NCBI RefSeq assembly: GCF_000160115.1
Contig: NZ_GG665866.1
Span: forward strand, 918,825-982,824
From: Shuttleworthella satelles DSM 14600
GTDB taxonomy: Bacteria; Bacillota; Clostridia; Lachnospirales; Lachnospiraceae
Reading direction: 5' to 3'
Length of the DNA: 64,000 nucleotides
Shown one piece after another: positions 11,316 to 55,564 of the stretch; within the stretch, counting starts at the first letter, position 1, and each line of letters begins with the position of its first letter. Made by a program: the position numbers and the translations under genes. Below the pieces are notes generated by a model, which worked only from the letters and a program-made list of their open reading frames with translations, was not told the origin of the DNA and made no database searches.

Positions 11316-11324
11316 GCGTCCTCC

Positions 11325-11606
11325 TTATCCCTGTACATTTGCCTGATCTGTCTCATCACCAGGCTTATATGCTCCTGCGCTGTCTACCTCCGGAATACCG
11401 GCAATAGAAGTTAAGATAGATACAAGTCCGGCAAGTACACTGGCGGACCCAACCATAATCCAGTTGACCTGACCCATAACCGCAGATGTGCCGATCGTAG
11501 CGATAGCGGTCTGTGCAGCGGTCTTTACCGCACGCACTGCCGCCGCCTTTACCCACGCAACTGTGTCAACGCTGGGGTTAAATACCGCACTCTTAAGCAT
11601 TGTCAT
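11325..11606 (-). CDS. Holin, r1t-type
   Basis: This 93-residue membrane protein reads AVRAVKTAAQTAIATIGTSA and then VNWIMVGSASVLAGLVSILTSIAGIP, two hydrophobic segments as in phage r1t holins. It sits directly before the endolysin. The start at 11606 follows GAGGAGAAAGAAA and overlaps the end of the upstream gene by 14 bases; the longer reading from 11648 has no ribosome site. Confidence 0.85.
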   Translation of the reverse strand: MTMLKSAVFNPSVDTVAWVKAAAVRAVKTAAQTAIATIGTSAVMGQVNWIMVGSASVLAGLVSILTSIAGIPEVDSAGAYKPGDETDQANVQG

Positions 11607-11931
11607 TTTCTTTCTCCTCTCTTCTGTCCTTATGGACAATCTCATCAATTCGATGGTGCGCCGATTTTGCAGACTGCTCGACGGTGAGCAGTCGATTGCT
11701 TATATCTGCGACTGTGCTCCGGAAGGCCTTCTGGTCTTCCTTAATTTCTGTTGTATCTTTTTGGATGTTTTGCAGTGCGGTTTCAATCTTGGCTCCTCTT
11801 GCCGCTTCCAGCCTCGCCTTCTCGATCTCTTCCCGCACATCACCCCCGTTGTTATGCACCGCCGTAAGGATCCCAAAAACCACGGTCCCAATCAGGGATG
11901 CAAGGGCTACTAAAATTGCTGGCTCTATCAC
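11593..11931 (-). CDS. Small membrane-anchored coiled-coil protein (XhlA-like position)
   Basis: The 112-residue protein has an N-terminal transmembrane helix (AILVALASLIGTVVFGILTAV) followed by a long charged helix (REEIEKARLEAARGAK, NIQKDTTEIKEDQKAF). Proteins with this form often lie next to the holin in Gram-positive phages and are described as holin-like or XhlA-like. The role in lysis is inferred from position. Confidence 0.6.
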   Translation of the reverse strand: MIEPAILVALASLIGTVVFGILTAVHNNGGDVREEIEKARLEAARGAKIETALQNIQKDTTEIKEDQKAFRSTVADISNRLLTVEQSAKSAHHRIDEIVHKDRREEKENDNA

Positions 11932-13289: not shown

Positions 13290-14341
13290 CACACCTCCTT
13301 AAGCGTTAGCTTTTGCGTCAGGCTCGATAAGCTGATCGAGTCGATATTTTTTATCATGCATTTTCGCCGGATGCCGTCTAAATCTGTATACATGACGATC
13401 TCCCCACAGGAGCAAGGGAAGTACATCGTGGTCATTGTGTAGCTGATGGTATAGCCGTTGTTTGCCGCATAGCTATCGGCTAAATCTTGTGCAGCCGCTT
13501 GCGTCTGTGGCTGTAAGTCGCTGATGCTATATACTTTTGCCCTTGTGTACCCCCTCCTCTGGAGGGAGGCTCTGGATGATGGACGCACGTCTGCTTGTGC
13601 TACAATCTCCCGATTGTCACCGCTATAGATCACGATCGCCCGGCTCTCCATGTCATAAAGAGTCGTACTCCGCTCGATACCATCATCAAGGATCATAGAC
13701 CGCTCCGATGTCGCATCAAGTTCCCAGCGCACACCCCTGGATGCAGGAGCGATATAAGGCTCGGCTGTGATGCGCCCGTGGCCGTCGACGGACAAATAAT
13801 TCCTTGACACCGTGCAGATGTCTTTCATGATGCTAAGATAAGACTCCCCCAAGTCATAAGCTTTCGAGGATCCGTATCTATAGTTGAGCGCTCCTGCCTT
13901 TGCTCTAAAAGTTTTTTCACAGACTTTTGCCACCGACTCAAGAGCAGTTAAAGCATAAGCGCCTTTCCCGATCGTCCAATGATTGCCGCAAAAGTCCTCT
14001 TTCAGCGTCCAAAGGACGGATTGGAGTTCGTACTCGATCGAGTGTAAACCTGCACTTACAGAGTCACCAGTGATGCCTGATACCACAAAAGTGCCGATTT
14101 CAGATTTATAATCTGTCCCTGGAATCGTGTCTACGATCCGAATCCAGCTGTCCTCGATATAGTCACTTTCAACAACCTTAATTTTTGCACTCGCCCTTGT
14201 CTCTGTCTCATGGCCAAAAGATAAGGAGCAGTCCTCAAGGACTACTCCTGTTAACTCTCCCCGGATGGAGTTGAGATCATGCGGATCTACTTGTAAAAAC
14301 TCCCACGCATGCTCCACTCTTGGATCTTTCCAGTCAATCAT
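13289..14341 (-). CDS. Phage tail protein (tail-associated, function not assigned)
   Basis: This 350-residue protein begins MIDWKDPRVEHAWEF. It has beta-rich segments in the first third (LEDCSLSFGHETETRASAKIKVVES) and a CSCGE cysteine pair near residue 310. It sits between the lectin-like tail protein and the tail-tip protein with 4-base overlaps on both sides, so it belongs to the tail-tip/baseplate group. It may be a tail-spike or baseplate hub protein, but no catalytic motif is clear. Confidence 0.55.
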   Translation of the reverse strand: MIDWKDPRVEHAWEFLQVDPHDLNSIRGELTGVVLEDCSLSFGHETETRASAKIKVVESDYIEDSWIRIVDTIPGTDYKSEIGTFVVSGITGDSVSAGLHSIEYELQSVLWTLKEDFCGNHWTIGKGAYALTALESVAKVCEKTFRAKAGALNYRYGSSKAYDLGESYLSIMKDICTVSRNYLSVDGHGRITAEPYIAPASRGVRWELDATSERSMILDDGIERSTTLYDMESRAIVIYSGDNREIVAQADVRPSSRASLQRRGYTRAKVYSISDLQPQTQAAAQDLADSYAANNGYTISYTMTTMYFPCSCGEIVMYTDLDGIRRKCMIKNIDSISLSSLTQKLTLKEV

Positions 14342-19277: not shown

Positions 19278-19287
19278 TTTTCACCTC

Positions 19288-19461
19288 CTAAAAAGCATCA
19301 AAATCGGCTTGAACTGCAACCCGATCTTCCGTCTTGCATTCTCCATTAAGCGAATTCCACTCGACAATATAATCAACCCACATGCCCATCGTCATTAGCT
19401 TTGCATCATTCATGCTCAATCCTCTTGCCACACCTGCGGCGAGAATCGTGTTAATCGTCAC
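19288..19461 (-). CDS. Tail assembly chaperone extension (gpT-like frame)
   Basis: This 57-codon frame begins with a GTG overlapping the stop of the upstream chaperone gene and ends in the ribosome site of the tape measure gene. It reads TINTILAAGVARGLSMNDAK and DYIVEWNS. In lambda-like tails the T part is made by -1 frameshifting as a GT fusion. Here the upstream frame (ending LKELKKATE) can pass into this frame by slipping -1 on the A run at 19471-19475. It could also start on its own GTG, but no ribosome site is evident. Confidence 0.7.
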   Translation of the reverse strand: MTINTILAAGVARGLSMNDAKLMTMGMWVDYIVEWNSLNGECKTEDRVAVQADFDAF

Positions 19462-19850
19462 TCCGTCGCCTTTTTGAGTTCCTTCAGGGACGGAGTCCGG
19501 GAGTTTTTTGATGTGAAAAATGACTCTACTGTTTCCGGAATCAGCTCCTCCATGATATCCATGACGCAGAAATCGTCTCCCAACTCAGTGATCCATGCCA
19601 CAAAGTCAGGGATCGAGTCATCACAGAGCCTTGCCATCGCCCAAGCAATCTGAGCGATACAGATTACACCAAGATCTTCGAAAAATACCGCGGTCCGCTC
19701 CGTGTCATCCTTGGCACTAAAAGCCTTAATGATTGTCGGAATCATGATCTTTGACGGATCCGTCCCGAACTGTGCCTTATAAACAAAAGTCCACGCAAAA
19801 GCGGTTGAAAATGCCACCTCTCTGTCTCCGATTTTTAAAGTTTTTACCAT
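19458..19850 (-). CDS. Tail assembly chaperone (gpG-like)
   Basis: This is a 130-residue protein between the major tail and tape measure genes. It starts MVKTLKIGDREVAFSTAFAW and ends with the charged stretch PSLKELKKATE. The size, position and overlapping second frame match the G/GT chaperones that coat the tape measure before tail tube assembly. Confidence 0.78.
   Translation of the reverse strand: MVKTLKIGDREVAFSTAFAWTFVYKAQFGTDPSKIMIPTIIKAFSAKDDTERTAVFFEDLGVICIAQIAWAMARLCDDSIPDFVAWITELGDDFCVMDIMEELIPETVESFFTSKNSRTPSLKELKKATE
19467..19477 (-). promoter_or_regulatory. Candidate -1 programmed frameshift site
   Basis: On the minus strand CTC-AAA-AAG-GCG lies 10-20 bases before the stop of the gpG-like frame. 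A slip of one base back on AAAAAG joins it to the gpT-like frame. This is the expected location for the tail chaperone frameshift. The heptamer (C AAA AAG) is not perfect. Confidence 0.5.
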
Positions 19851-19863
19851 GCTTACCTCACTT

Positions 19864-19899
19864 AAAAAAACAAGTGCGGCAGGTTATCCTGTCGCACTT
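19864..19899 (-). terminator. Strong hairpin terminator between major tail and chaperone genes
   Basis: AAGTGCGACAGG and CCTGCCGCACTT pair around an ATAA loop and are followed by seven T on the minus strand. It lies inside the late operon and would reduce transcription of genes downstream of the abundant major tail protein. Confidence 0.85.
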
Positions 19900-19905
19900 A
19901 TATCG

Positions 19906-20493
19906 TCAATGCCCGGGAGTTACAGTGGAGTCCTTTTCATAAGGTTTTTCTCCATATAAAGAGTTGTAGCCGGCATCACCCTGTTCAGCACTCGCCTTCA
20001 CAATCCTTGTGTCAAGCCTGGGCTTTGCGGAGAATGAAAGCTTTGCCTCATTGTACTTCTTCTTTTCTTCAATCGTCTCTGAGGAAATGTCCGGACGAGT
20101 TGCAAGGCAACGGTAGAAAACATGTCGCCGCTGGTTGATGTCTCCCTCGAACTCGCAAGCCATCGCAAACTCTGCCGGCTTTGCTTCTGAGCTCTCAAAG
20201 ATCACTCCATTCTTGTCCTTGATCTCCTTTAGAATCTTGACCCGAAAATCCTCCGGGACGTCAGCAATGGTCAGATCGCCACTATATCCGTTGTTCGTCA
20301 CAGTACTGACATACGTGGCATTGTCTGCATAAAATGAGTCGGTTGATCCCTCTGCCTTCAGCGCCAAATTGACGGCTCCGGGGATCTTAAACTTTTCTCC
20401 ATAAGTCGGGACTCCGTCATCACTTGTCGATGTGATCGGCCAAACGATGACATTCCTTAGTCCATAGGTTACCTTATTTTTCTCTGTTCCCAT
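19906..20493 (-). CDS. Major tail protein
   Basis: The 195-residue protein forms the tail tube. It reads VTYGLRNVIVWPITSTSDDG, GAVNLALKAEGSTDSFYADN and GYSGDLTIADVPEDF, as in phi13/TP901-type major tail proteins. The start at 20493 follows AGGAGGAAAA. It lies after the head-tail joining genes and before a strong terminator. Confidence 0.88.
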   Translation of the reverse strand: MGTEKNKVTYGLRNVIVWPITSTSDDGVPTYGEKFKIPGAVNLALKAEGSTDSFYADNATYVSTVTNNGYSGDLTIADVPEDFRVKILKEIKDKNGVIFESSEAKPAEFAMACEFEGDINQRRHVFYRCLATRPDISSETIEEKKKYNEAKLSFSAKPRLDTRIVKASAEQGDAGYNSLYGEKPYEKDSTVTPGH

Positions 20494-20501
20494 TTTTCCT
20501 C

Positions 20502-20813
20502 CTAACAATAAAAAACAGTCTGAAACATCTTTTCTGTGTCAATCCAATTGGAGGCACCGCCAGACCAGGGGATCTCATACTTACAGAAAAGATCGATCAG
20601 GATTTTTTCCGCTTCTAAGTCCTTTACCTTCGTGTAAAGTTCGACCGCAAAAGACGGCGTCCAGTCATAGACCGTGTTATCGGCATAAAACTGCACTTTT
20701 TCAGTTTCAAAATACGCGATGTATTTTTCAGATTTTGGCGGATCCTTGAATTGATAGTATGCAAAAGGGATCTTAGACTCCTTTAGTATTTGAGTGATGG
20801 TCTCATACTTCAT
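20502..20813 (-). CDS. Tail completion/terminator-type protein
   Basis: The 103-residue protein (FAYYQFKDPPKSEKYIAYFE; VELYTKVKDLEAEKILIDLF) lies between the HK97 gp10-like gene and the major tail gene. This is the usual place of the tail terminator protein that caps the tube. The assignment rests on position and fold-like pattern. Confidence 0.65.
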   Translation of the reverse strand: MKYETITQILKESKIPFAYYQFKDPPKSEKYIAYFETEKVQFYADNTVYDWTPSFAVELYTKVKDLEAEKILIDLFCKYEIPWSGGASNWIDTEKMFQTVFYC

Positions 20814-21220
20814 AATCTCATCTCCTCGACCGCATCAGCAAATCTCCTTGATGCCTCATGATTTACTTTGGCTATATGCGGGAAAGTTTTCGACCGCCTC
20901 CCCGTCTTTGCAATTACATGTCCAAACTCCAGAAGATGCGTCAGCTGATAATGCTTGGAATTGTGGACTTCATAATTCACAATTCCAACTGCATTCTCAT
21001 CGACTTTTACCTTCCAACTTTTTGCGTAAGAGCCAGGCGGGTATCTGCGATCAAATCCATCCGTCCGTACAGGGGATGTCTCCTTGAGTTCTTTCGCGCC
21101 ATAATCAGCAGCTTCTTTTGCGGCCTCGTTCACTTTCTTTATGACTTCCAACTTCATGTCATCAAGCGCTCTATTGACCACATCACTTAGCTGATCGATG
21201 CGGACGATTTCATCTTGCAA
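20810..21220 (-). CDS. HK97 gp10-like tail/head-tail protein
   Basis: The 136-residue protein reads AADYGAKELKETSPVRTDGF, GSYAKSWKVK and LTHLLEFGHVIAKTG, ending with a helical tail. The TSPVRTG...YAKSW...HLLEFGH pattern is the hallmark of the HK97 gp10 family in siphovirus head-tail regions. It overlaps both neighbours by a few bases. Confidence 0.85.
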   Translation of the reverse strand: MQDEIVRIDQLSDVVNRALDDMKLEVIKKVNEAAKEAADYGAKELKETSPVRTDGFDRRYPPGSYAKSWKVKVDENAVGIVNYEVHNSKHYQLTHLLEFGHVIAKTGRRSKTFPHIAKVNHEASRRFADAVEEMRL

Positions 21221-21530
21221 CTCCAGTCACCTCTCTGTAGTAAAGCTCTATACCTCCGTCTTCGGTCGGATAGGTGCGATATATGAAATATTTCTCCCCC
21301 TCAATTTCCAAAAAACTCTCTTTCTTGTAGTCAGCCTCATCTCTCAGAAACACCATGCCTTGCGGATTTAACCCGGCCTGCGCTACGGATGCCCACTCCT
21401 GCCTTGAGATGCCGTGAAGCGTTCCAATGACGCTCCTCCTCACTTCTTCGCCAGGGATCTGCTGCCCGATTCCATCAAGTCTATACTTGATGGAAATTAG
21501 AATTACATCTGCAATTCTCTCCATGCTCAC
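21210..21530 (-). CDS. Head-tail adaptor/head closure protein
   Basis: A 106-residue protein beginning MSMERIADVILISIKYRLDG with a beta-rich C-terminal half (ESFLEIEGEKYFIYRTYPTE; GIELYYREVTGVAR). Its place between the gp6-like connector and the gp10-like gene fits the head closure protein of HK97/SPP1-type phages. Confidence 0.65.
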   Translation of the reverse strand: MSMERIADVILISIKYRLDGIGQQIPGEEVRRSVIGTLHGISRQEWASVAQAGLNPQGMVFLRDEADYKKESFLEIEGEKYFIYRTYPTEDGGIELYYREVTGVAR

Positions 21531-21808
21531 CTCCGGTTATAATCTCCGCAGAGTGCAAGAGCAGCCTTAAGATGCTCATAGGCCTGTCCAAAGGTCTCCG
21601 CATTACTGTCATACCCAAACTGGGATTTCAAGTATAGTTTCAACGCCTGCTGAATCAACGGGTCTTCTGGATCCACTTTTACAACTCCACCAATCAACAA
21701 GTCCATCAGGCAGGCCTCCACGACCTGCCTGATCTCCTCATCTCTTGATCCGATTCTCAGCCATCCTTTGGCTGAGTTAATCAATTCTGCGCTAATCTCA
21801 GCCATCAA
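21527..21808 (-). CDS. gp6-like head-tail connector
   Basis: This is a 93-residue, all-helical protein (GWLRIGSRDEEIRQVVEACL; PLIQQALKLYLKSQFGYDSN; AYEHLKAALAL). It resembles the short gp6-type connectors found directly after the major capsid gene. Confidence 0.75.
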   Translation of the reverse strand: MMAEISAELINSAKGWLRIGSRDEEIRQVVEACLMDLLIGGVVKVDPEDPLIQQALKLYLKSQFGYDSNAETFGQAYEHLKAALALCGDYNRR

Positions 21809-21815
21809 GCCCTCC

Positions 21816-22970
21816 TTATGCGGTCTTCACAGTCAAAACAGCAAAGGATTTGTCATTGATCAGAGCGCACTCGCTTCTCTCGTAGCCGGAATAGATATAC
21901 TTGTGTGCCTTGATGTCCTTGTCGGTCTCGACCATGATGTCGGAAACGACGTTGTTCACAACCTGCTTTGGGTCTCCGATCAGAAGCTCGTTGTCTGCAA
22001 CGCTATCCTCGATCTTAATGGGGGCACCCAAAAGATAGCCCTGGATTCCCTCTGTCGCATTGGGCTGGAAGATCAGACGGCCATCGCCATCCGTCAGGGT
22101 TGCAAGACGGTTATACAGCGTCGCTCTTGTGCAGTACACCGCAGGAGTCTTGGCCTTCTGCAGAGATGCAAAAGCACCGCAGATCTCTTCATAAGTTGCT
22201 TTGCCTACTGCCGCTGTCGTCTTCTTGTTCCCGGCGTTCACGCCTGCCTTAATGGTTGCGACCATATCATTTGCGATTGCGTCTCCGATACTAGAGGCGA
22301 TCTCGCTTACAAGATAAGCCTCTAAAGCATCGATACTCATCTCCGCCTCCGCATAAGACAGCTCAATCGCCTTCACAAAGTCATTCCCGGACAGGGTCAC
22401 CTTAACAATGGTGTTCTGCTCATCGTCTACAGGTGCAGTCCCTTCTGCGGTCTTTGCCTGCTTTGTTCCGGCTCCCTTTACAATTGCAGTATGCTTCACG
22501 ACTTCAAGGATCGTGCCGGTGCGGTATGTGGTCACATCGCCCACAATCGTGTGCGTCTTAGACACAAGGTCCCAGATTTCATTTAACATGGTTGTGGGAA
22601 GCGGTGCCGGCGTGTTCTGCGTCGTGTGAGTGAATGCGGTGTTCTCCAGAGCGGTCATCTGATCAGCTCTCCCTGAAATCTGCTTCAAAAAAGCGTTCTT
22701 ATACTCAACACTTGCTACGTCTGCAACTGCTCCAATAGTCTTGTTTTCTTCTCCCAACTTTCTTTCCTCCTTGAATCTTGCGTTCACATCAGTTCCCTTC
22801 TCAAGCGCCATTTCCTCGGCATGCGCCGTCTTCTCCGCTTCAAAAGCGGACTCAATCTGATTAATCTCCGCTTTCTTAGCTTCTGCCTCCTCCAACTTTC
22901 CCGCTCTTGCAAGCTCTGCGCCTTCTGCTTTCAGCTTGGCAATCTGCTTTGTCTTTTCTGCTAAGTTCAT
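21816..22970 (-). CDS. HK97-family major capsid protein
   Basis: The 384-residue precursor has an N-terminal helical delta/scaffold domain (about residues 1-75, rich in E, K and A) and an HK97-fold body (LPTTMLNEIWDLVSKTHTIV; VKAIELSYAEAEMSIDALEA; DLIFQPNATEGIQGYLLG-type P/A-loop region). The delta domain is expected to be removed by the protease encoded just upstream. Confidence 0.93.
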   Translation of the reverse strand: MNLAEKTKQIAKLKAEGAELARAGKLEEAEAKKAEINQIESAFEAEKTAHAEEMALEKGTDVNARFKEERKLGEENKTIGAVADVASVEYKNAFLKQISGRADQMTALENTAFTHTTQNTPAPLPTTMLNEIWDLVSKTHTIVGDVTTYRTGTILEVVKHTAIVKGAGTKQAKTAEGTAPVDDEQNTIVKVTLSGNDFVKAIELSYAEAEMSIDALEAYLVSEIASSIGDAIANDMVATIKAGVNAGNKKTTAAVGKATYEEICGAFASLQKAKTPAVYCTRATLYNRLATLTDGDGRLIFQPNATEGIQGYLLGAPIKIEDSVADNELLIGDPKQVVNNVVSDIMVETDKDIKAHKYIYSGYERSECALINDKSFAVLTVKTA

Positions 22971-23614
22971 CTCTCCTCCTTTGCAAAATACGCTAAAAGA
23001 TTTTCTTTCCGTTCCTGCATCTTCCGGATCACAGACGCCTGAATCAACTCTCCTCCAGACGCAACCAATGCTACCGGCTCAATCTCTTTCGAACTCTCCC
23101 CGGCAATTTCATCAATCAACCCATAATCAACAGCATCTTGTGCAGTGATCCATGTCTCTGCATCCATCAGGTCTAAAGCATCTTTCTCGCTCATGCCGGA
23201 CTTGGCCACATATGCCTCCGCAATCGCACGATTTGCCTGTTTCAGCACCTCTGACGCATGATTCATGTCTCTGTAGTCTCCTGCCGTGTATGCGCTGACA
23301 TTGTGCACCATCATCTGAGCTGTCCGTGTGATGTCCGATTTCCCGGCGCATGCGATCATTGATGCCGCAGATGCAGCAAGACCGACAACATGGATCTTGA
23401 CATCTCCCTTATAGCCCTGAATTGCCGCATAAATTTCTGATGCGGCAAAGACATTTCCGCCGGCAGAATTAATGTCAATATCAACCTTTTCTCCGCTGGC
23501 CTCTTCTAGCTGCCTCAAGACAGCGGATGGGCTCGTGCATTTTTCGCCGAAGTACTCATAAATCCATGCTTCTTCGTCCGGAACAATTGCGCCTTTGATT
23601 TCAATCTTCGCCAC
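22967..23614 (-). CDS. ClpP-like prohead protease
   Basis: The 215-residue serine protease has NSAGGNVFAASEIYAAIQ, the nucleophile region GLAASAASMIACAG, the histidine in MMVHNVSAYTAGD, and AETWITAQDAVDYGLIDEI. It processes the capsid precursor. The GTG start at 23614 is preferred because AAAGGAGGAG lies just before it; an earlier in-frame start at 23641 lies inside the portal gene. It overlaps the portal gene end by 14 bases. Confidence 0.9.
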   Translation of the reverse strand: MAKIEIKGAIVPDEEAWIYEYFGEKCTSPSAVLRQLEEASGEKVDIDINSAGGNVFAASEIYAAIQGYKGDVKIHVVGLAASAASMIACAGKSDITRTAQMMVHNVSAYTAGDYRDMNHASEVLKQANRAIAEAYVAKSGMSEKDALDLMDAETWITAQDAVDYGLIDEIAGESSKEIEPVALVASGGELIQASVIRKMQERKENLLAYFAKEER

Positions 23615-24800
23615 CTTCTCCTCCTTTCTCCAAAATTCCATTTCCTACAGTCTGCGTGTCCAATCGTCGAATTGGGACATCTCCTCCGGGGATCGGAGCC
23701 ATATTAAGAGCTGCTCTCCATTCATTGGGAGTCATCGCCCCCCTGTCGACCATTGACACCAAGCTGAGTTTTGTGGAAATTGACGCAGAATCCCAGGCAC
23801 TTGCTTCGAAAACAATTTTGTTCCCAAAAGACCGCTCCCGGCGTGTGAACAATTTCCTCGTGTATTCCCCGCCAAGCTGGATTAAAACCGGCTCGACCTC
23901 TGCGTCGAAATAAGCATTGTACTGTCCCTCTGAGAATTTCGATGACACGATCTCTGCATTCGTATTAAAAAGATCAAAGATCCTTTTTGTTGTCCGGTCC
24001 ATCTGCAGGGCGTTTGGCACATAGTCGGTCGGAGTGATTTGCTTTGCATCTGCTTTTGCGTCAACCGCTGCAACGCCTGTGCCGTTCGATGTGGCCAGAA
24101 AATTGTCTGCAAAATCCTTTGCCTGCGTTTTTAAATCCTCCGGCCGCATGCTGTTCGTGAAGCTCAAAAGCCAGCGAATCACAGAGCTGTTCTTGATCGC
24201 ATTCATCACCCCTTGATCCATCGTCGTGACGACATCAAGCAATGGCGTGAGCGCAGGTGCAATCGGTGTTCCGAAGATGTCGTTCTCGTTGAAATCCTGC
24301 CTTAGATGGATGATATCCTCGTATGGAAAGGTGTAGGCCTTATTGTTCATCATCTGGAATTCCAGCAAAAGTTGACCGTTCTTGTCATAAATTGCCTTGA
24401 CTGTTCTCCCGATAATGGGATAGATCTCAATTGGGCTACCGTATTCATCCCGAATGATTAGCGCAAAAGCGTTCGCATTCAAAATCAACTGAGTCGCCAT
24501 CTTCTCCTGCAGCATCTGCCCTGTCATAAGCGAATTTGGCTCTTCAAGCAAAAATTTAACCGCATTTGATGGATTGACAGTCATTTCCTTGTGTCCATCC
24601 TCAAACACGGTTTCTCTTATATGTTTTGCCAGAAGTTTCCCGATTGCTTTCACTTTTGGCCGTATGCAGCTCCTCACGATATCTGCGTCATAGATCTTTC
24701 CTGACCAGCTGATATAATTGTTTCCAACCTGTTGCATCAGCTCCACGCCAGACACTTGCTTCGCCGCAAACATACTTTTGATTTTTGATATAATTCCCAT
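23601..24800 (-). CDS. HK97-family portal protein
   Basis: The 399-residue protein forms the DNA-entry vertex. Typical segments are YISWSGKIYDADIVRSCIRP, EIYPIIGRTVKAIYD, DIIHLRQDFNENDIFGTPI and the C-terminal SMVDRGAMTPNEWRAALNM. The start at 24800 follows GAGGTGAAA. It lies between the large terminase and the protease. Confidence 0.92.
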   Translation of the reverse strand: MGIISKIKSMFAAKQVSGVELMQQVGNNYISWSGKIYDADIVRSCIRPKVKAIGKLLAKHIRETVFEDGHKEMTVNPSNAVKFLLEEPNSLMTGQMLQEKMATQLILNANAFALIIRDEYGSPIEIYPIIGRTVKAIYDKNGQLLLEFQMMNNKAYTFPYEDIIHLRQDFNENDIFGTPIAPALTPLLDVVTTMDQGVMNAIKNSSVIRWLLSFTNSMRPEDLKTQAKDFADNFLATSNGTGVAAVDAKADAKQITPTDYVPNALQMDRTTKRIFDLFNTNAEIVSSKFSEGQYNAYFDAEVEPVLIQLGGEYTRKLFTRRERSFGNKIVFEASAWDSASISTKLSLVSMVDRGAMTPNEWRAALNMAPIPGGDVPIRRLDTQTVGNGILEKGGEGGED

Positions 24801-24807
24801 TTTCACC

Positions 24808-26457
24808 TCAAATCAAAGATAAGTAATCTTCCCTTTTGTCTAAAAGAACTGTATAGGCATCCAGAAGAGATGCTGTCCCGTCAATCCTCTTGGTCTGTGA
24901 TCGTCCCTTGTTCGGCTGGATATTCCCGTTTACATCCGATTTGACGTAAGTATTCGCAAAGCACCATCGATCGATAGGATTTGCGTCATACACGATGTTT
25001 CCGGCCTGAAAGTCTGCCTTAAGATCCTTCATCGGTTGAGATAAGGTTACGGCCCCCTGGCGGATTGGGATCATCGTACTTTTCCCAAACTCTTGGCAGA
25101 AAAGAGACAAGAGACTGTCATCAATATGCCAAGGATCATACCCAATATACAAAGGCCATATGTCTTCCTTATCTCGCATTTCTAAAAACCAGTCAAGAAA
25201 CACCCGCTTATGGACTTTATTCCCTGGCACTACTCGGATCAATCCTCTACTCTCCCAGATGTCATAAGGCACATCGTCCGGATGGTGCCGGTCCTTTGTC
25301 ATGTCGAGCTTGGATTGTGGAATCCAGTACATGGATTTTACATAGATTTTAGGATCATCCGGGCGCATGCCTATAAGCTTTGCACTGTTCAAGTCAATGC
25401 TATCGGCAGCATCCATTCCACCGATTGCATATTTGAAATTTATTTCTTCCGGGATCTTCTCGTCATTGGCCAGCTCGTCCCAAGATAACCATGCGGCATC
25501 GGCATTCTCTTTCAAGTTGAAATCCTTGACTAAGACGGTCGGAAGGAAGGTGTCATCAGACTTCCCTTTTCCCACGCATCCCTCAAGGAATTCCTTACTC
25601 TTGATTGTGCCTAGCCCTGGATTAGCCTTGACCCATTTTCCGGGCTGATTCCACTCATCCCTTTTGTCCAGCTCATATATGATCGGCAGAAAGCGCTCGT
25701 CTTTGATCGTCCCTTCAATCACCCCCTTTGCATACTCGTACTGACTATCGAAAATTGATTCTCTAACAAATCCGCTTGTCGTGATGCACCAGAGCATCGG
25801 CTGAGATCTGGAGGACATCGACTGCTTCATCAAATCGTAGACGTCACGATTCTTAATCGCCGCCAGCTCGTCGATTACGATGCAGTGGCCATTCAATCCG
25901 TCCAGACTGTTGGTGTTGCTTGCCAGGGGCTTTATAAATCCCATGTTCACATCGCAATATAGATCGCTTTGACGTTTCCGCACATGCTTCGCAATCGTCT
26001 TTGACTGACGCACCATGTTGACACATTCCGTGAATCCCTTCATCGCCTGGTCTCTTGCGGTAGCGATTTGATAACATTCGGGGGCGCCCTCTTTGTCAGC
26101 GATAAGCATGTAAAGCTGAATCGCCGAAAGAAGCGTTGTTTTCCCGTTTTTTCGACCGACAATATTCAATACTTCTTGATATCGCCGGTGATCGTTGTCA
26201 TCCAAAAATCCATATGCCGCCTGCAGCATTGCCTTCTGGTAGAGTTCAAGTTTCAGAAAATGTCCTGCCTGCCCTTGAGATTGTTTGCAAAATTGCTCAA
26301 TAAATTCGATTGGCCGATGTGCACGGTCATCATCAAAGTGCCACCTGTCTTGATGATGGAGATCCTCTAAGAGCCTTTCATACTCTCGTTTTAACTTCTC
26401 GCACGCTGCAACCTTTCCATCAAGGACAGCTGTTCCATACTTTTCTAAATCAGTCAC
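24808..26457 (-). CDS. Terminase large subunit
   Basis: The 549-residue packaging motor has an ATPase domain with the Walker A-like VGRKNGKTTLLSAI near residue 107 and CIVIDELAAIKNRD (Walker B), followed by a nuclease part with AIGGMDAADSIDLNSAKLIG and IGYDPWHIDDSLL. These match the HK97/lambda-like TerL_1 type. Its start overlaps the end of the small subunit by 8 bases. Confidence 0.94.
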   Translation of the reverse strand: MTDLEKYGTAVLDGKVAACEKLKREYERLLEDLHHQDRWHFDDDRAHRPIEFIEQFCKQSQGQAGHFLKLELYQKAMLQAAYGFLDDNDHRRYQEVLNIVGRKNGKTTLLSAIQLYMLIADKEGAPECYQIATARDQAMKGFTECVNMVRQSKTIAKHVRKRQSDLYCDVNMGFIKPLASNTNSLDGLNGHCIVIDELAAIKNRDVYDLMKQSMSSRSQPMLWCITTSGFVRESIFDSQYEYAKGVIEGTIKDERFLPIIYELDKRDEWNQPGKWVKANPGLGTIKSKEFLEGCVGKGKSDDTFLPTVLVKDFNLKENADAAWLSWDELANDEKIPEEINFKYAIGGMDAADSIDLNSAKLIGMRPDDPKIYVKSMYWIPQSKLDMTKDRHHPDDVPYDIWESRGLIRVVPGNKVHKRVFLDWFLEMRDKEDIWPLYIGYDPWHIDDSLLSLFCQEFGKSTMIPIRQGAVTLSQPMKDLKADFQAGNIVYDANPIDRWCFANTYVKSDVNGNIQPNKGRSQTKRIDGTASLLDAYTVLLDKREDYLSLI

Positions 26458-32977: not shown

Positions 32978-33070
32978 TCATGCCATCCATAAAACTGCGG
33001 CCATCAATCCGACTGCTCCAGCCCAAAGGGCGACAGTCTTTAGCACATCAAGTATCCTTACTTTTCTCAT
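32978..33070 (-). CDS. 30-residue single-pass membrane peptide
   Basis: It reads MRKVRILDVLKTVALWAGAV and then GLMAAVLWMA, one hydrophobic helix with a charged N-terminus. The GAGGAGGCAAAAAG ribosome site is perfect, and its ATG overlaps the stop of the upstream repeat-protein gene (ATGA), so translation is coupled. Function unknown. Confidence 0.65.
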   Translation of the reverse strand: MRKVRILDVLKTVALWAGAVGLMAAVLWMA

Positions 33071-33891
33071 CTTTTTGCCTCCTCTTCTGTGGCTAACGCC
33101 TCCGCGAATTTTACGTACTTTTTATACATTCGTCCGGACTCCTCAGAGTCGGCGTATGCTTTTTTAATCAGCTCCTCCGACGTACCTAAAAAGCACCCAA
33201 CTGACCACATTTTTGTTTTTGGGTTGTAAAAAAAATCTCTGAGGCTCGACCAGGAGTTTTTGAAGATAAAGTTGTCTGTGTCTTTAAGTTCAAAATCTTC
33301 TCCGTACCAAAACGTCACCCGAGCATTGCCGCACACCCAAGCATTGCCGTACACCCGAGCATTGCCGTACACCTGAGCATTGCCGTACACCCAAGCATTG
33401 CCGTACATCCGAGCATTGCCGTACACCTGAGCATTGCCGTACACCCAAGCATTGCCGTACATCCGAGCATTGCCGTACACCTGAGCATTGCCGTACACCC
33501 GAGCATCACCGGACACCCGAGCATTGCCGTACACCTGAGCATTGCTGGACACCCAAGCATCACCGCACACCCAAGCATTGCCGTACACCCGAGCATCGCT
33601 GGACACCAGAGCATTGCCGGACACCAGAGCATCGCTGGACACCCGAGCATTGCCGTACACCCGAGCATTGCCGTACACCCGAGCATTGCTGGACACCCGA
33701 GCATTGCCGTACACCTGAGCATTGCTGGACACCCAAGCATCGTCGCTATGACTTAAATTCTCTTCTTTTTCAACAAATCCGCCCAAGTCACCGGCTTTTA
33801 CGTCGCCAAAGTCGATTAATGCTTTGATCCGATAAAGCTGTCTAAACTCTGTGTCTTTTGTGTCAGAGGTCAGCTCAAATTTCTTTTCCAT
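33067..33891 (-). CDS. Hexapeptide-repeat (left-handed beta-helix-like) phage protein
   Basis: The 274-residue protein has an N-terminal part (FELTSDTKDTEFRQLYRIKA; AGDLGGFVEKEENLSHSDDA), 24 consecutive hexads of the form NARVYG, NAQVYG or DARVSS (about residues 49-192), and a C-terminal part (FKNSWSSLRDFFYNPKTKMW). Hexads with small residue, aliphatic and glycine at fixed positions form left-handed beta helices in acyltransferases, but no catalytic histidine region is evident. The start at 33891 follows GAGAGGTAAAA. Function in the early phage operon is unknown. Confidence 0.8.
   Translation of the reverse strand: MEKKFELTSDTKDTEFRQLYRIKALIDFGDVKAGDLGGFVEKEENLSHSDDAWVSSNAQVYGNARVSSNARVYGNARVYGNARVSSDALVSGNALVSSDARVYGNAWVCGDAWVSSNAQVYGNARVSGDARVYGNAQVYGNARMYGNAWVYGNAQVYGNARMYGNAWVYGNAQVYGNARVYGNAWVCGNARVTFWYGEDFELKDTDNFIFKNSWSSLRDFFYNPKTKMWSVGCFLGTSEELIKKAYADSEESGRMYKKYVKFAEALATEEEAKR
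33313..33744. repeat. About 24 tandem 18-bp units encoding the hexapeptide repeats
   Basis: Units of the type ATTGCCGTACACCCGAGC, with variants at two or three positions, run head to tail with no spacers. Some larger blocks (such as the 54-base block around 33380-33490) recur exactly, which suggests recent expansion by unequal exchange. Confidence 0.9.
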
Positions 33892-33896
33892 CGCTT

Positions 33897-34064
33897 TTAC
33901 CTCTCTTGTGCATAGTAAAAAAGTGTCAGCCATACAATCCCGCCCATCACCATAGCGGCGGGGATCAGGCTCTCACTGTCTAAAAGCATCGCCCCGATCA
34001 CGAAAGCCGCCGCCGCTAAAGCGGTGATCGAGCGCAAGATAGTGTTGTGCAACCTCCTCTTCAT
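33897..34064 (-). CDS. Small two-helix membrane protein of the early phage operon
   Basis: The 55-residue product (MKRRLHNTILRSITALAAAA, then VIGAMLLDSES and AAMVMGGIVWLTLFYYAQER) has two hydrophobic helices. Its ATG overlaps the stop of the upstream helix-turn-helix gene (ATGA), and its stop overlaps the ribosome site of the hexapeptide-repeat gene. Function unknown; small early membrane proteins sometimes act in superinfection exclusion. Confidence 0.6.
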   Translation of the reverse strand: MKRRLHNTILRSITALAAAAFVIGAMLLDSESLIPAAMVMGGIVWLTLFYYAQER

Positions 34065-36925: not shown

Positions 36926-37028
36926 TTGACACTTGTGCCCTAAATGGTATACTAATACCCGAAGCGAATGGCTGGTGACCGGCCACAAAAGAGCTTTGGG
37001 CCCAATACCGCCCAAGGCTCTTTTTGTA
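36926..37028 (+). ncRNA. Short structured RNA with own promoter upstream of the Abi_2 gene (abiF-type candidate)
   Basis: TTGACA (36926-36931) and TATACT (36948-36953) with a 16-base spacer form a strong promoter. About 10 bases later comes a tight hairpin (TGGCTGG TGA CCGGCCA), then a second hairpin (AAGAGC..GGGC / GCCC..GGCTCT) ending in a T run at about 37025, 20 bases before the Abi_2 start. A transcript of about 65 nucleotides would end before the gene. The arrangement fits the abiF RNA motif described upstream of AbiF-type genes; the match itself was not tested. Confidence 0.7.
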
Positions 37029-37045
37029 TTTAAGAGGGGACCGAT

Positions 37046-38017
37046 ATGCAAAGTCACACAATGTATGAATTAGTTGACAAACAGGTTGAGAAATTAAATA
37101 GCCAAGGACTAATCATACATGATTATGACGATTTGAAAAATGATTTGAGAATTTACGGATATTCAAATCTAATAAAAAGCTATCGTGATCCTTATATGCA
37201 TTTTGACGGGACTACCAAACGGTATCGAAACGGTATAACATACGAGCAAATATGTTCACTCTATCTGATGGATAAGTCCTTAAGAACCTGCATCATGGCC
37301 GCAATGCTTGACCTTGAAGAATATATTAAGACTCAGCTTGCAGAGGTTTTATTGTGCTCTTTCGGAGAAAAACAAGAAGATTACCTACAGTTCAAAAATT
37401 TCAGAGATCGATCCAAGCCTTATACACCGGATCGTTTTACTTTAGAGGGGGTACTAAATTCCCTAACAGAGGCTTCTCTGTCAGGGAAAAATCCAATCAA
37501 ATACTATAGAGAAAAGTATGGCAATGTTCCTCCGTGGATTCTGTTGAAAGGTGTATATTTTGGCACGACAATAAATTTAATTAATTCGCTAAAGCCAAAA
37601 GAAAGGGACATGTTTGCGTCATCTTTCTATCCACCGGAAGATGAATTCATTCAATCTTTGAGCCGTGCGCAACTCCAATCACTAATGATGGATACACTTT
37701 ATATTGCTAACGCATATAGGAATTGCGCGGCTCATGGCGGGCGAATTTATGATTTTGATACTTCTAACAGGTTCCATGATAGGAGTTTGTTCACGAAAAT
37801 CCCAAACCCCCACATACGAGGATTCAATCTGTTCCTTTTCCTACTATGTCATCTGCAATACAGAGAGCCGTATAAATCTATAATGAATACCCTAAATTAT
37901 GAGTTGAATTTTCATTTAGAGAAATACAGCGAGGATGCAACTTACCTTAGCCAATATCTGGGGGTTGAAATTTTGCTAAAAACTGATCTTGATCACCCTA
38001 AATCGAAACCTAAATAA
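37046..38017 (+). CDS. Abi_2 family abortive-infection protein (AbiD/AbiF-like)
   Basis: The 323-residue protein reads NSQGLIIHDYDDLKNDLRIY, TYEQICSLYLMDKSLRTCIM and PPWILLKGVYFGTTINLINS, the standard Abi_2 sequence features. The HEPN ribonuclease motif R-x4-H is present as AYRNCAAHGGRIYD (Arg225, His230). Proteins of this group abort infection by other phages. It is carried by the prophage on the lysogeny side, so it probably protects the lysogen. Its RNA leader may control or neutralise it. Confidence 0.9.
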   Translation: MQSHTMYELVDKQVEKLNSQGLIIHDYDDLKNDLRIYGYSNLIKSYRDPYMHFDGTTKRYRNGITYEQICSLYLMDKSLRTCIMAAMLDLEEYIKTQLAEVLLCSFGEKQEDYLQFKNFRDRSKPYTPDRFTLEGVLNSLTEASLSGKNPIKYYREKYGNVPPWILLKGVYFGTTINLINSLKPKERDMFASSFYPPEDEFIQSLSRAQLQSLMMDTLYIANAYRNCAAHGGRIYDFDTSNRFHDRSLFTKIPNPHIRGFNLFLFLLCHLQYREPYKSIMNTLNYELNFHLEKYSEDATYLSQYLGVEILLKTDLDHPKSKPK

Positions 38018-38666: not shown

Positions 38667-39765
38667 CTTGAATATACACTCTAAGTGCAACAATTAAAAA
38701 ATGACTCATAGCCTTGGTATAATGGTGTTTGCTAAGACATCCAAAATCCAAGGAGGAACTATGAGTCATTACAAACATCTTACACCAATTGAGAGAGAAA
38801 AGATATTTCTTCTCCACTCTCAGAATAAAACATTGACCTATATAGCCAAGACTATTCATCGTGATAAGTCAACAGTCTCCAGAGAAATAGCTCGCAACAG
38901 CTATAAGGGAGCTTATTCACCAAGTGTAGCTCATACTAAATATTTGAAACGTCGTACCAACTGCAAACCTAAACTCAAACTCTCTAATCCTAAAATATTC
39001 AAATATGTTAGAGATAAGTTTCTAAAATTAAAATGGTCACCTGAACAAATATGTGGTCGGCTAAAACTGGAGAAATCCGAGCGATATATCAGTTATGCAA
39101 CAATATATCGTGCTATATATTCTGGAATGTTTGACACTGACAAGGAACGTGCTTCGAATGGTAATCGTGGTGCCATCCGCAAACTTCGTCATCGTGGGAA
39201 ATCACGACATGCACAATGGTACATTGAAAAACGCGGGAAAATTCCAATCAGCAACAATATTTCAGATAGACCTAAGGAAGCTAATAACCGAATCCGCATA
39301 GGAGATTGGGAAGCCGATACGGTTATTGGCAAGAGAGGCGGGGCTTGCCTTGTTACTCTGGTTGACAGAAAGAGTCGTTTTCTTCTAAGTTCTAAAGCCA
39401 AGAAGAAAGATTCTGTGTCTGTAAGAGATACTATGATTTCCTGTCTTACAGGGCAACCTTGTCACTCAATTACACCTGATCGAGGCATGGAATTTGCGAA
39501 ACACGCTGAAATTTCCCTTGCACTCGAAAAGGTTAAATTTTATTTTCCGCTGCCACATCATCCTTGGCAACGAGGAACAAATGAAAATACAAATGGACTT
39601 CTTAGAGAGTATTTTCCTAAGAGTTACGACCTTGATGATGTGACAGAAGAATATATACAAAGCAAAGTGGATGAAATGAACAAACGACCACGAAAATGCC
39701 TTGGATTCAAAACACCCTATGAAGTCTATCATTCAATCGTGTTGCACTTAGCTTGACAATTCAAG
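38667..39765 (+). mobile_element. IS30-family insertion sequence
   Basis: The element is about 1.1 kb. Its ends form an imperfect inverted repeat: CTTGAAT...CTAAGTGCAACA at 38667-38692 and the complement at 39740-39765. One transposase gene fills it. No clear target duplication is seen, which fits recombination or deletion next to the insertion. Confidence 0.88.
38761..39756 (+). CDS. IS30-family transposase
   Basis: The 331-residue protein begins MSHYKHLTPIEREKIFLLHS with an N-terminal helix-turn-helix (TLTYIAKTIHRDKSTVSREI), followed by the DDE core: GDWEADTVIG, ITPDRGMEFA and RGTNENTNGLLREYFPKS. The start at 38761 follows CCAAGGAGGAACT; an upstream in-frame ATG at 38701 lies in the terminal region and has no ribosome site. 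All catalytic residues are present, so it may be active. Confidence 0.95.
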   Translation: MSHYKHLTPIEREKIFLLHSQNKTLTYIAKTIHRDKSTVSREIARNSYKGAYSPSVAHTKYLKRRTNCKPKLKLSNPKIFKYVRDKFLKLKWSPEQICGRLKLEKSERYISYATIYRAIYSGMFDTDKERASNGNRGAIRKLRHRGKSRHAQWYIEKRGKIPISNNISDRPKEANNRIRIGDWEADTVIGKRGGACLVTLVDRKSRFLLSSKAKKKDSVSVRDTMISCLTGQPCHSITPDRGMEFAKHAEISLALEKVKFYFPLPHHPWQRGTNENTNGLLREYFPKSYDLDDVTEEYIQSKVDEMNKRPRKCLGFKTPYEVYHSIVLHLA

Positions 39766-40357: not shown

Positions 40358-41818
40358 ATGGCGATATATCATCTTTGCATAAAGATTATCTCAAGAAGTA
40401 AAGGCAAAAGTGCAGTAGCAGCTTCCGCTTATCGAAGTGGCGAAACAATAAAAAATGAGTATGACGGAATAGTACATGACTTTACAAGAAAAGGCGGAAT
40501 AACCCATACAGAAATTTTATTGCCGCAAAACGCACCACAGGAATTTTCAGACAGAGGAACATTATGGAATAGCGTCGAGAGAATAGAAAAAAGTAAAAAT
40601 TCTCAGCTTGCAAGAGAAATAGAAATTGCCCTACCAAAAGAATTAGACAATGAAAAACAAATTGAACTTGTACAAGAATATGTAAAAGAAAATTTTGTAA
40701 AAGTCGGTATGTGTGCCGATATTGCCTTACACGATAAAAATGACGGAAATCCACACGCTCATATCTTACTTACTATGCGACCGCTAAACGAAGATAAAAC
40801 ATGGGGAGCAAAATCAAAAAAAGAATATATCCTTGACAACAACGGGGAAAAGATAAAACTCAAAAACGATAATTACAAGACAAAGAAAATTGACACAGTT
40901 GATTGGAACGAACAAGATAAAGCGGAACAATGGCGAAAAGCATGGGCAGACATTGCAAACAAATATTTGGAAGAAAACAGCATACAGGAAAAAGTCGACC
41001 ACCGTTCTTATCAAAGACAGGGGATAGAGCAAATACCTACCATTCATTTAGGAGTATCAGCAAGTCAAATGGAAAAGAAAGGCATAGCTACCGACAGAGG
41101 AAATATCAACCGAGAAATCAAACATCAGAATAAGCTATTAAGAGAAATTGCACGAAGAATAAAAGTATTGCTAAATTGGATAAGGGGAATTGGAAAAGAA
41201 GAAAAAGTAGAAAATGAAAATATAAAGTCTACCCTCCCAACCAAAGAAAATCTGTTATCAGTTTTGGAAAATCTTATCCGTAAAAACGCAGATAAGAATA
41301 ATGCAGACTTAGAGAAATATATTGAAAGTTATCAGCTACTCAAAGAGAAAAACATTACAAGTATCAATCAATTAAAAGATAGCATTACCGATTTACGAGA
41401 TAAGAATTATAAGACCACAAGAGCCTTAAAAGATACCGAGAAAAAGATTGATGAAAAAACACAACTCATAGACCAATCAGAAAAATATTTGAAGTACAAG
41501 GATACCTACAAAGCCTATACTAAGTTAAAGAAAAACAAACAGGAAGATTTTTATAATGAGCATACGGCAGAACTTATTTTATTTGAAAGTGCAAAGAAAC
41601 ATCTCAAAGAACATTTAGGAGAAAGTAAGACCTTAGCCATCAGTAAATGGAAATCAGAACTTAACACTTTGAAGAAAGATAAAAAGAGCCTTTACAATCA
41701 AATATTGGAGGTACGAGAAGAAGTTGAACAGGCTGAAAAAGTTAAAACCTGTATAGAGCAGTTACAGGAGCATTCAAAGGAACTATCACAGGTAAAGAGA
41801 AATGAATTAGACATATAA
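40358..41818 (+). CDS. MobA/MobL-family relaxase (MOBQ type)
   Basis: The 486-residue protein nicks oriT and leads DNA transfer. The N-terminus has the family start AIYHLCIKIISRSKGKSAVA and SAAYRSGE-like ASAYRSGETI, and the histidine triad HDKNDGNPHAHILLTMRPL near residue 130. NREIKHQNKLLREI follows. Residues about 295-480 form a long coiled coil. The ribosome site is GAGAGGAGG. The relaxase domain looks intact, so the segment could be mobilized if a helper provides the transfer channel. Confidence 0.92.
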   Translation: MAIYHLCIKIISRSKGKSAVAASAYRSGETIKNEYDGIVHDFTRKGGITHTEILLPQNAPQEFSDRGTLWNSVERIEKSKNSQLAREIEIALPKELDNEKQIELVQEYVKENFVKVGMCADIALHDKNDGNPHAHILLTMRPLNEDKTWGAKSKKEYILDNNGEKIKLKNDNYKTKKIDTVDWNEQDKAEQWRKAWADIANKYLEENSIQEKVDHRSYQRQGIEQIPTIHLGVSASQMEKKGIATDRGNINREIKHQNKLLREIARRIKVLLNWIRGIGKEEKVENENIKSTLPTKENLLSVLENLIRKNADKNNADLEKYIESYQLLKEKNITSINQLKDSITDLRDKNYKTTRALKDTEKKIDEKTQLIDQSEKYLKYKDTYKAYTKLKKNKQEDFYNEHTAELILFESAKKHLKEHLGESKTLAISKWKSELNTLKKDKKSLYNQILEVREEVEQAEKVKTCIEQLQEHSKELSQVKRNELDI

Positions 41819-55282: not shown

Positions 55283-55558
55283 ATTATAAAAAAGCCCTCG
55301 TCCACTACGATACGTAGGGACAAGAGCCTGTACTCCTGCGGTGCCACCCTATTTGACGCGAATCCTTCGCGCCCACTCATGCATACGAACATATGCGGGA
55401 TCTTGATCACGGAGATCCTGCTCCGTCTCACCTACTGAGTTACCCGTTCGGCTCGCCCTCAGAAGCCCATTCAGAATACAATTCCTGTCGCCATCACACC
55501 ATCGGCGGCTCTCTTGAAAGAATCGAGGCATTCCTACTATTTCTTCCTCACTGGTTTG
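55283..55558 (-). ncRNA. T-box riboswitch, tryptophan-type
   Basis: The T-box element AGGGTGGCACCGCAGG lies at 55335-55350 and is followed by a terminator hairpin (GCTCTTGTCC/GGACGAGGGC with an inner stem) and T run at 55287-55328. The Stem I region begins with AGAGAGCCG near 55515. The probable specifier is UGG at 55467-55469 in the context CTGAATGGGC, which fits tRNA-Trp. Uncharged tRNA would stabilise the antiterminator and allow trpB expression. Confidence 0.9.
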
Positions 55559-55564
55559 TCGCTT

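What the first reader, a model, noticed from the sequence alone, without database searches (positions are those of the whole stretch)
36926..38017. Promoter-RNA-terminator unit directly before a prophage Abi_2 gene
A near-consensus promoter drives a predicted RNA of about 65 nucleotides with two hairpins that ends in a terminator 20 bases before the Abi_2 start. This matches the arrangement reported for the abiF RNA motif and is formally like type III toxin-antitoxin loci, where an RNA restrains the toxin and only readthrough makes protein. The Abi_2 protein carries the HEPN R-x4-H motif. The prophage may thus carry an RNA-controlled ribonuclease for exclusion.
Basis: partly seen in the sequence, partly recalled or inferred. 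Interest (0 to 1): 0.66.

Follow-up and report, generated by a model that had tools for sequence, protein, structure and literature searches.

The report
RNA-restrained Abi_2 toxin in a prophage
A prophage carries a probable RNA-cutting suicide enzyme preceded by its own small RNA of a type that the public RNA-family library does not recognise, and many other phages carry such RNAs without the enzyme, perhaps to disarm this kind of bacterial defence.

Summary
The unit is real: promoter 36926-36953, predicted ~67-nt RNA with two hairpins, terminator, ribosome site, then Abi_2 (37046-38017; PF07751, RNCAAH) in a tailed-phage prophage. The leader does not match Rfam abiF (RF03085), even at E<=10. 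A model built from 11 homologous leaders without the window finds it as the only hit in the 64-kb window (32 bits). So it belongs to a leader-RNA class unrecognised by Rfam, tied to one Abi_2 clade. Most likely it is the antitoxin of an AbiF/AbiFr-type RNA-protein toxin-antitoxin (known: C. difficile AbiF/RCd22; PbAbiF, 8vz6). Transcript, binding and toxicity are inferred.

The same hairpin occurs without Abi_2 in 14 viral records (0 of 14 have Abi_2), and as whole leaders without the gene in 4 of 9 hits in 397 family genomes. Of 54 RF03085-type pattern matches in viral contigs, 45 lack a neighbouring Abi_2, 4 have one, 5 could not be judged. Orphans lie near tRNA genes more than chance gives (9 of 14, 0.73 expected; 13 of 45, 2.82 expected). 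My boldest reading: phage antitoxin mimics, RNA decoys against Abi_2. The searches listed in the report showed no paper saying so.

The parts
36926..36953 (+). promoter TTGACA-16-TATACT with TG before the second hexamer
   Evidence: a sigma-70-like promoter lies at the same place in most homologous leaders printed
36955..36989 (+). leader-RNA motif: 5' single-stranded stretch (..GAAGCGAAT) plus 7-bp hairpin; member of the class modelled here as R1/R2
   Evidence: leave-one-out model R2: 32.0 bits, E 2.5e-5, only window hit at E<=1; only hit in the 2.17-Mb genome at E<=0.001, E 1.3e-4
36969..36985 (+). first hairpin, UGGCUGG-UGA-CCGGCCA, with a U-G pair kept in most relatives
   Evidence: fold; pair counts in homologues
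36987..37025 (+). terminator hairpin, 15 pairs, loop CCAATACC, T-run
36960..37026 (+). predicted small RNA, about 67 nt (start inferred from the -10 box)
   Evidence: inference; no transcript data
37033..37039 (+). ribosome-binding-type site AGAGGGG
   Evidence: sequence
37046..38017 (+). Abi_2 (AbiD/AbiF-like) HEPN-type protein, 323 aa, RNCAAH at 225-230
   Evidence: Pfam, PADLOC AbiD, profile match to PDB 8vz6 E 9.5e-20 with the motif aligned

Best explanation
The unit is an RNA-protein toxin-antitoxin module of the AbiF/AbiFr kind carried as prophage cargo beside a repressor-type gene. Its promoter makes mostly a short RNA that stops at the terminator; some transcripts read through and give the Abi_2 mRNA (inferred from the homologous C. 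difficile locus). The 5' single-stranded stretch and the first hairpin bind the Abi_2 dimer and keep its HEPN active site (R225, H230) off (inferred). When a second phage disturbs transcription or RNA stability, the short-lived RNA runs out, the protein cuts RNA (by analogy tRNA or other single-stranded RNA), and the cell stops before the phage multiplies; the module also favours keeping the prophage (inferred). Shown here: the anatomy, the protein family and motif, membership of the leader in a paired RNA class tied to one Abi_2 clade, and occurrence of that RNA without the gene. Not shown: transcript, binding, toxicity, defence.
For: Anatomy. Protein family, match to PbAbiF 8vz6 with the R/H motif aligned. 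Leave-one-out recognition of the leader; at E<=0.001 nothing else in the genome. Hairpin in 21 leaders: 98.0% of cells paired, 12 cells with both sides changed, covariation score 0.341 against 0.208 shuffled, 0 of 500 shuffles as high on these three. In a quick 97-row protein tree the 11 rows of the leader class are one side of a branch, support 99, apart from the RF03085-labelled rows (labels set by me). Published precedent: RCd22 neutralises AbiFCd in cis and in trans by binding (PMC12373285, abstract and passages); the PbAbiF-RNA complex as told in a review (PMC12737573, passages). RNA kept where the gene is absent fits an RNA that acts in trans.
Against: No RF03085 match. Only one motif copy found, where classic type III antitoxins and RCd22 have repeats. 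Two of the five pairing measures, those that relatedness inflates least, do not exceed shuffles: pairs with both sides changed 2 (371 of 500 as high) and further pair types 6 (418 of 500); 4 (109 of 500) and 9 (406 of 500). The covariation thus rests on a few pairs (A-U/G-C and C-G/G-C swaps). The window's 5' stretch departs from its kin: it lacks the AATTAG core and the short 5' stem that many homologues show (that helix is 77.8% paired). No expression or activity data. The window's tree branch is rather long (0.89), so relaxed function cannot be excluded.
Confidence: 0.75

Rival explanations
1. The leader is only a cis attenuator: it sets how much Abi_2 mRNA is made by early termination and has no action on the protein.
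For: Terminator between promoter and gene; RCd22 also lowers abiF expression at the transcriptional level (PMC12373285, section heading). In some homologues (10 of 44 representatives score 8 or more), not in the window, the promoter spacer is complementary to the terminator region, which could make an antiterminator in read-in transcripts.
Against: The part that the class model recognises is the 5' stretch and first hairpin, without the terminator, and the same part is kept in RNAs with no Abi_2 gene behind them.
Confidence: 0.13
2. AbiD1-like control: the leader governs translation and is opened by a protein of an infecting phage.
For: For lactococcal AbiD1, phage Orf1 binds the mRNA start region and activates translation (PMC2661086, abstract read); PADLOC names the window protein AbiD.
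Against: Here a terminator separates the hairpin from the start codon; the RNA class also exists without the gene.
Confidence: 0.06
3. Ordinary parts: a stray promoter and terminator between two prophage genes, without a functional RNA.
For: Promoter-like and terminator-like sites occur by chance (6.5 and 2.8 expected in 3 kb); the 5' stem is not kept in the window.
Against: Leave-one-out match, fold z -4.73, the same order in most homologues printed.
Confidence: 0.05

Closest known systems
C. difficile phi027 AbiFCd / RCd22 (PMC12373285)
   Same: Prophage-borne Abi_2 gene; sigma-A promoter, short structured RNA, terminator, ribosome site, gene; HEPN R/H motif; readthrough gives mRNA
   Different: RCd22 has two RF03085 motifs; in the window one hairpin of another class was found, which RF03085 does not hit. 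phi027 abiF lies in the lysis module (passages); the window gene lies next to an HTH_3 gene
PbAbiF / AbiFr, PDB 8vz6
   Same: Abi family protein; profile E 9.5e-20 over profile positions 5-236, RNxxxH aligned on R210/H215; one RNA per monomer as told in PMC12737573 (passages)
   Different: Its RNA was not compared with the window's; function was measured there, not here. The original paper was not read
Rfam RF03085 abiF RNA
   Same: Short hairpin RNA upstream of Abi_2
   Different: No covariance match in the window nor in 6 loci of its class at E<=1; a different conserved core
Type III toxin-antitoxins ToxIN, AbiQ, TenpIN, CptIN
   Same: RNA gene, terminator and toxin gene in one unit; RNA restrains an RNase
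   Different: Different toxin family and complex (passage of PMC12373285); tandem repeats there, one motif found here
PhiTE pseudo-ToxI (PMC3475682, abstract read)
   Same: Phage-borne RNA resembling a type III antitoxin, without the toxin gene: the model for my reading of the orphan RNAs
   Different: Other toxin family; expansion under selection and protection shown there, nothing functional shown here

Membership tests
Abi_2 / AbiD-AbiF HEPN proteins (PF07751) | Pfam match above the curated cut-off | tested here: met
   109 bits, cut-off 25.6
Abi_2 / AbiD-AbiF HEPN proteins (PF07751) | R-x4-H HEPN motif at the position of PbAbiF R210/H215 | tested here: met
   profile alignment to 8vz6; R225, N226, A229, H230 invariant in the 6 rows of A1. 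The role of R210/H215 is from PMC12373285 (passage)
Abi_2 / AbiD-AbiF HEPN proteins (PF07751) | toxic RNase activity | not testable with these tools
   needs expression
Rfam RF03085 abiF RNA | covariance-model score at or above 37 bits | tested here: not met
   no match at gathering or E<=10; the model works on relatives (13 of 291 genomes at E<=0.001, 9 over the cut-off)
Rfam RF03085 abiF RNA | lies just upstream of an Abi_2 gene | tested here: met
Leader-RNA class of this report (models R1, R2) | recognised by a model built without it | tested here: met
   R2 from 11 other leaders: 32.0 bits, E 2.5e-5 in 417 kb
Leader-RNA class of this report (models R1, R2) | AATTAG core and short 5' stem before GAATG | tested here: not met
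   the window reads ACCCGAAGCGAAT; the stem is formed in most but not all of the 12 rows
Type III toxin-antitoxin | RNA gene directly upstream, own promoter, terminator before the toxin gene | tested here: met
   (sequence signals only)
Type III toxin-antitoxin | two or more tandem antitoxin repeats | tested here: not met
   one motif found by R2 in the window; that repeats are a key feature is stated in PMC12373285 (passage)
Type III toxin-antitoxin | RNA binds and inhibits the toxin | not testable with these tools
   inferred from homologues
Phage antitoxin mimic (reading of the orphan RNAs, not of the window) | antitoxin-like RNA in a phage without the toxin gene | tested here: met
   0 of 14 records with the new class have PF07751; over the cut-off in 3 of 48 records with the RF03085-type pattern, one more weak match below it; records may be fragments
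Phage antitoxin mimic (reading of the orphan RNAs, not of the window) | protects the phage from the toxin | not testable with these tools
   needs infection assays

The most novel reading that the evidence does not exclude
Phages commonly carry solitary copies of Abi_2 antitoxin RNAs, of at least two unlike classes (RF03085-type and the window's class), often beside tRNA genes. They are RNA decoys that hold Abi_2/AbiF nucleases off during infection, while the neighbouring tRNA genes replace tRNAs that the nuclease cuts: an RNA-based counter-defence against the family from which Cas13 is said to descend.
Probability: 0.45. Interest if true: 0.86.

Novelty: new variant of a known kind. Interest (0 to 1): 0.63.

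Why it matters
The module adds a second antitoxin-RNA class to the AbiF family; Rfam misses it in the window and in the 6 class loci scanned at a permissive threshold, so surveys that rely on RF03085 would undercount these systems. Because leader class and protein clade go together in the rows compared, the family is a test bed for how a HEPN nuclease and its RNA changed together on the way to Cas13. If the orphan RNAs are decoys, they would be a widespread RNA counter-defence that can be found by computation and tested in ordinary laboratory strains, and would offer a reason why some phages keep certain tRNA genes beside these RNAs.

Tried and rejected
RF03085 as the identity of the leader: rejected. 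Close-relative scans with the window protein alone: nothing in genome contigs, only the window's own prophage record in viral contigs; an alignment (A1) was needed. One general alignment of 29 leaders (A3) was too loose at the terminator and was not used for counts; A2 was used only for a fold. Promoter-spacer complementarity to the terminator region: real over the set but absent in the window, so left out of its mechanism. A blastn of an orphan region found nothing in the phage records; the Streptococcus-type leader found six records, all already seen with Abi_2. R2 in 10 other records (4 Enterocloster phages, SPBc2, one unnamed faecal phage record, 4 pattern contigs of 23-394 kb): nothing at E<=0.1. 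The Enterocloster and SPbeta phages are relatives of one orphan carrier by a phage RNA polymerase; that the 4 and 1 tested lack the RNA speaks against a general rule. Of the 49 pattern loci, 32 have neither Abi_2 nor a match that I count; weak R2 matches of 22-23 bits in L201, L204 and L237 I hold to be chance because the hairpin is not formed there. L243 is counted as an orphan though it scores only 12.7 bits, E 0.34. A structure prediction was not run: rows of A1 came from tools that the fold tool does not name as allowed.

Rows left out: the R1 searches were given 83 sources (the window among them) and 60, not all of the 191 loci then held (near-copies and the RF03085 loci L033-L047 left out). 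The tree used 97 of 122 proteins (near-copies about 90% alike and rows under 230 aa dropped, after rows under 250 aa had been dropped from the search for related loci set; two members of the leader class, L080 and L166, fell out by length). The tree's RNA labels other than the window's class are crude text matches. One search was given 48 of the 54 records (L270, which has an Abi_2-like frame, and five with too little DNA behind the motif were left out). The Abi_2 search looked 1.5 kb up and 1.8 kb down. The pair counts leave out L212, a copy of L209.

Full report
WHAT IS THERE. The window holds, on the + strand, TTGACA (36926) - 16 nt - TATACT (to 36953), a predicted RNA of about 67 nt with two hairpins, a terminator ending near 37025, AGAGGGG, and the Abi_2 frame 37046-38017. 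The fold is clearly better than shuffles (z -4.73). Upstream lies an HTH_3 gene; downstream are a short Peptidase_M78-like frame (19.7 bits, below its cut-off of 22), a DUF4177 gene and a transposase-like gene (HTH_38; rve below its cut-off). Phage structural and lysis genes lie within 10302-26457 on the other strand. An IMG/VR record of 29,969 bases carries the identical protein. The genome has one Abi_2 match. None of its three tyrosine-integrase matches lies in the window, so the prophage may be defective or use another recombinase.

THE PROTEIN. Pfam Abi_2 and PADLOC AbiD. A profile of the window protein and five homologues finds PDB 8vz6 at E 9.5e-20, with the RNxxAH motif on R210-H215 of PbAbiF. 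R225, N226, A229 and H230 are invariant among the six. That 8vz6 is an AbiF-RNA complex is told in PMC12737573 (passages); its original paper was not read.

THE LEADER IS NOT RF03085. cmscan gives no abiF match in the window at gathering or at E<=10 in the 301 bases around it. In 291 genomes of the class the RF03085 model has matches in 13 (9 over the cut-off); by position 9 of its 15 matches lie just before Abi_2 matches, so the model works on this family. None of 20 homologous loci gives an abiF match at gathering, and 6 loci of the window's class give no Rfam match at all at E<=1.

IT BELONGS TO ANOTHER CLASS. Homologues found with alignment A1 (33 loci in genome contigs; 122 in viral contigs, 80 kept) mostly have leaders of the same order (by eye). 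The closest share AATTAGYGAATG plus a hairpin RCUGSUNNSCGGYC. A model of 11 such leaders without the window (R2) finds window 36955-36989 at 32.0 bits, E 2.5e-5 in 417 kb, and nothing else in the window at E<=1; in the window's genome it is the only match at E<=0.001. The window keeps GCGAATG and the hairpin but not the AATTAG core. On 21 leaders the hairpin is 98.0% paired, with 12 double-change cells and covariation 0.341 against 0.208 in shuffles (0 of 500 as high on each) and at most 0.099 in slid controls. Against this, the number of pairs with a double change (2; 371 of 500 shuffles as high) and of further pair types (6; 418 of 500) do not exceed shuffles (likewise), and the tool warns that kinship alone can lift the first measures. 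So pairing is well supported, covariation only by a few pairs. In a quick tree of 97 Abi_2 proteins the 11 rows of this class form one side of a branch with support 99; the five rows labelled RF03085 lie elsewhere (one change, support 22). Leader and protein thus diverged together in these rows, as expected if one recognises the other; the labels were set by me and the sets were gathered by protein likeness, so this is supportive, not proof.

MECHANISM. In C. difficile phi027 the same order is shown to make mostly a short RNA, with some readthrough, and the RNA neutralises the toxic AbiF protein in cis and trans through direct binding; the structure of its hairpins matters (PMC12373285: abstract, section 7, passages of other sections). 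I infer the same for the window. The step that releases the toxin during infection is inference from type III systems in general.

ORPHAN RNAs. A pattern scan of IMG/VR for AATTAGYGAATGRCTG gave 49 contigs. Seven have Abi_2 within 1.8 kb downstream; eight more carry the hairpin and no Abi_2 there; R2 adds L196 and L221; 32 have neither. A longer pattern, TTAGYGAATGRCTGSTNNSCGGYC, gave 11 contigs, all among the 49: 4 with Abi_2, 7 without. A scan with a stretch downstream of the hairpin gave 11 contigs, 5 of them new, all 11 with the element by eye, one (L242) with two tandem copies. R2 scores the five new ones 27.2, 24.8, 22.2, 21.4 and 12.7 bits; that pattern was taken from orphans of the first scan, so these are kin, not an independent draw. 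Over whole records, R2 hits 13 of 14 orphan records at E<=0.001, once each; Abi_2 is in 0 of 14. Three of 7 tested (126, 159 and 162 kb) have a Terminase_6N match just over the cut-off. On 13 orphan rows the hairpin is 96.2% paired with 5 double-change cells (0 of 500 shuffles reach either); covariation 0.361 against 0.264 (7 of 500), pairs with a double change 3 (35 of 500), further types 7 (153 of 500). Without any pattern, R2 over 397 genomes of the window's family found 9 loci: 5 with Abi_2 behind, the window included, 4 without (L246, L247, L252, L254). In these four, promoter, hairpin and terminator look intact; a recombinase-like gene follows in three (by sequence look); in L252 a 12-codon frame follows the ribosome site, which I take for a remnant. 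So the RNA is kept where the gene is absent.

A SECOND CLASS DOES THE SAME. The lytic cyanophage S-CREM1 is reported to carry an abiF RNA (PMC9964418, passages); a 2025 review calls its role unconfirmed (PMC12197685, passage). In its record the RNA lies between tRNA-Asn and tRNA-Gly, and the record has no Abi_2 match. A pattern for the RF03085 core gave 54 viral contigs: 4 with Abi_2 near it, 45 without, 5 too near a contig end to judge. Abi_2 passes its cut-off in 3 of the 48 records given; a fourth has a weak match below it with two stops. The 45 orphans hold 26 distinct stems; on average 6.42 of 7 positions pair against 4.17 when arms are dealt anew, 0 of 2000 as high. A tRNA gene lies within 200 nt on the same strand in 9 of 14 orphans of the window's class (0.73 expected from random places on the same loci) and in 13 of 45 of the RF03085 type (2.82 expected); several loci in either set are near-copies, and one of the 13 (L306) rests on an odd tRNA-Stop prediction.

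READING. Two unlike classes of Abi_2 antitoxin-like RNA occur alone in phages, keep their pairing, and lie near tRNA genes more than random places do. The simplest common reason is counter-defence by mimicry, as shown for pseudo-ToxI of PhiTE against ToxIN (PMC3475682, abstract). A related HEPN effector, Cas13a, cuts tRNA anticodons (PMC11042736, title and start of abstract in a listing; passage of PMC12373285), which would make a tRNA gene a fitting neighbour. Other readings stand: phage small RNAs with another task, remnants of lost modules (likely for the prophage orphans), or an Abi_2 gene outside a fragment. The four Enterocloster phages and SPBc2 that I tested do not carry the R2 class.

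LITERATURE. Searches of the held library: no listed title, abstract start or passage that I saw calls abiF-type RNAs decoys. The library lacks most subscription papers.

Noticed in passing
L115, L136, L096, L107, L090 and others (leaders upstream of Abi_2); not in the window: The promoter spacer is complementary to the terminator region: over 44 representatives own score 5.93 against 5.03 for permuted pairs, 0 of 10000 as high (0 of 5000). Possible antiterminator in transcripts that read in from upstream. The window scores 5, no sign of it.
   Followed up: partly
L246, L247, L252, L254, L221: Whole leaders (promoter, hairpin, terminator) without Abi_2; in L247 and L252 a tyrosine-recombinase-like gene follows, in L254 and L221 (1.4 kb on) a serine-recombinase-like gene (by sequence look, not by a family search).
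   Followed up: partly
L242, about 680-738 (minus strand): Two tandem copies of the orphan hairpin element before a tRNA-Tyr gene, like the repeats of type III antitoxins.
   Followed up: no
L218:391-3381: 997-aa protein related to YonO-type RNA polymerase of SPbeta phages (about 37% identity): the 126-kb orphan carrier looks SPbeta-like.
   Followed up: partly
window 33067-33933 (-): Frame with many near-identical short repeats of the type GNARVYGNA.
   Followed up: no
window 38701-39756 (+) and 40358-41818 (+): Transposase-like gene (HTH_38) at the end of the IMG/VR prophage record as I place it, then a MobA/MobL relaxase gene: a mobilisable element may abut the prophage.
   Followed up: no
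window 55313-55560 (-): T-box leader, Rfam RF00230, 93.9 bits.
   Followed up: no
Streptococcus phages and satellites L074-L077: Abi_2 with the same leader order lies between DNA-binding or small genes and the integrase end of the record, including in satellite phages.
   Followed up: partly
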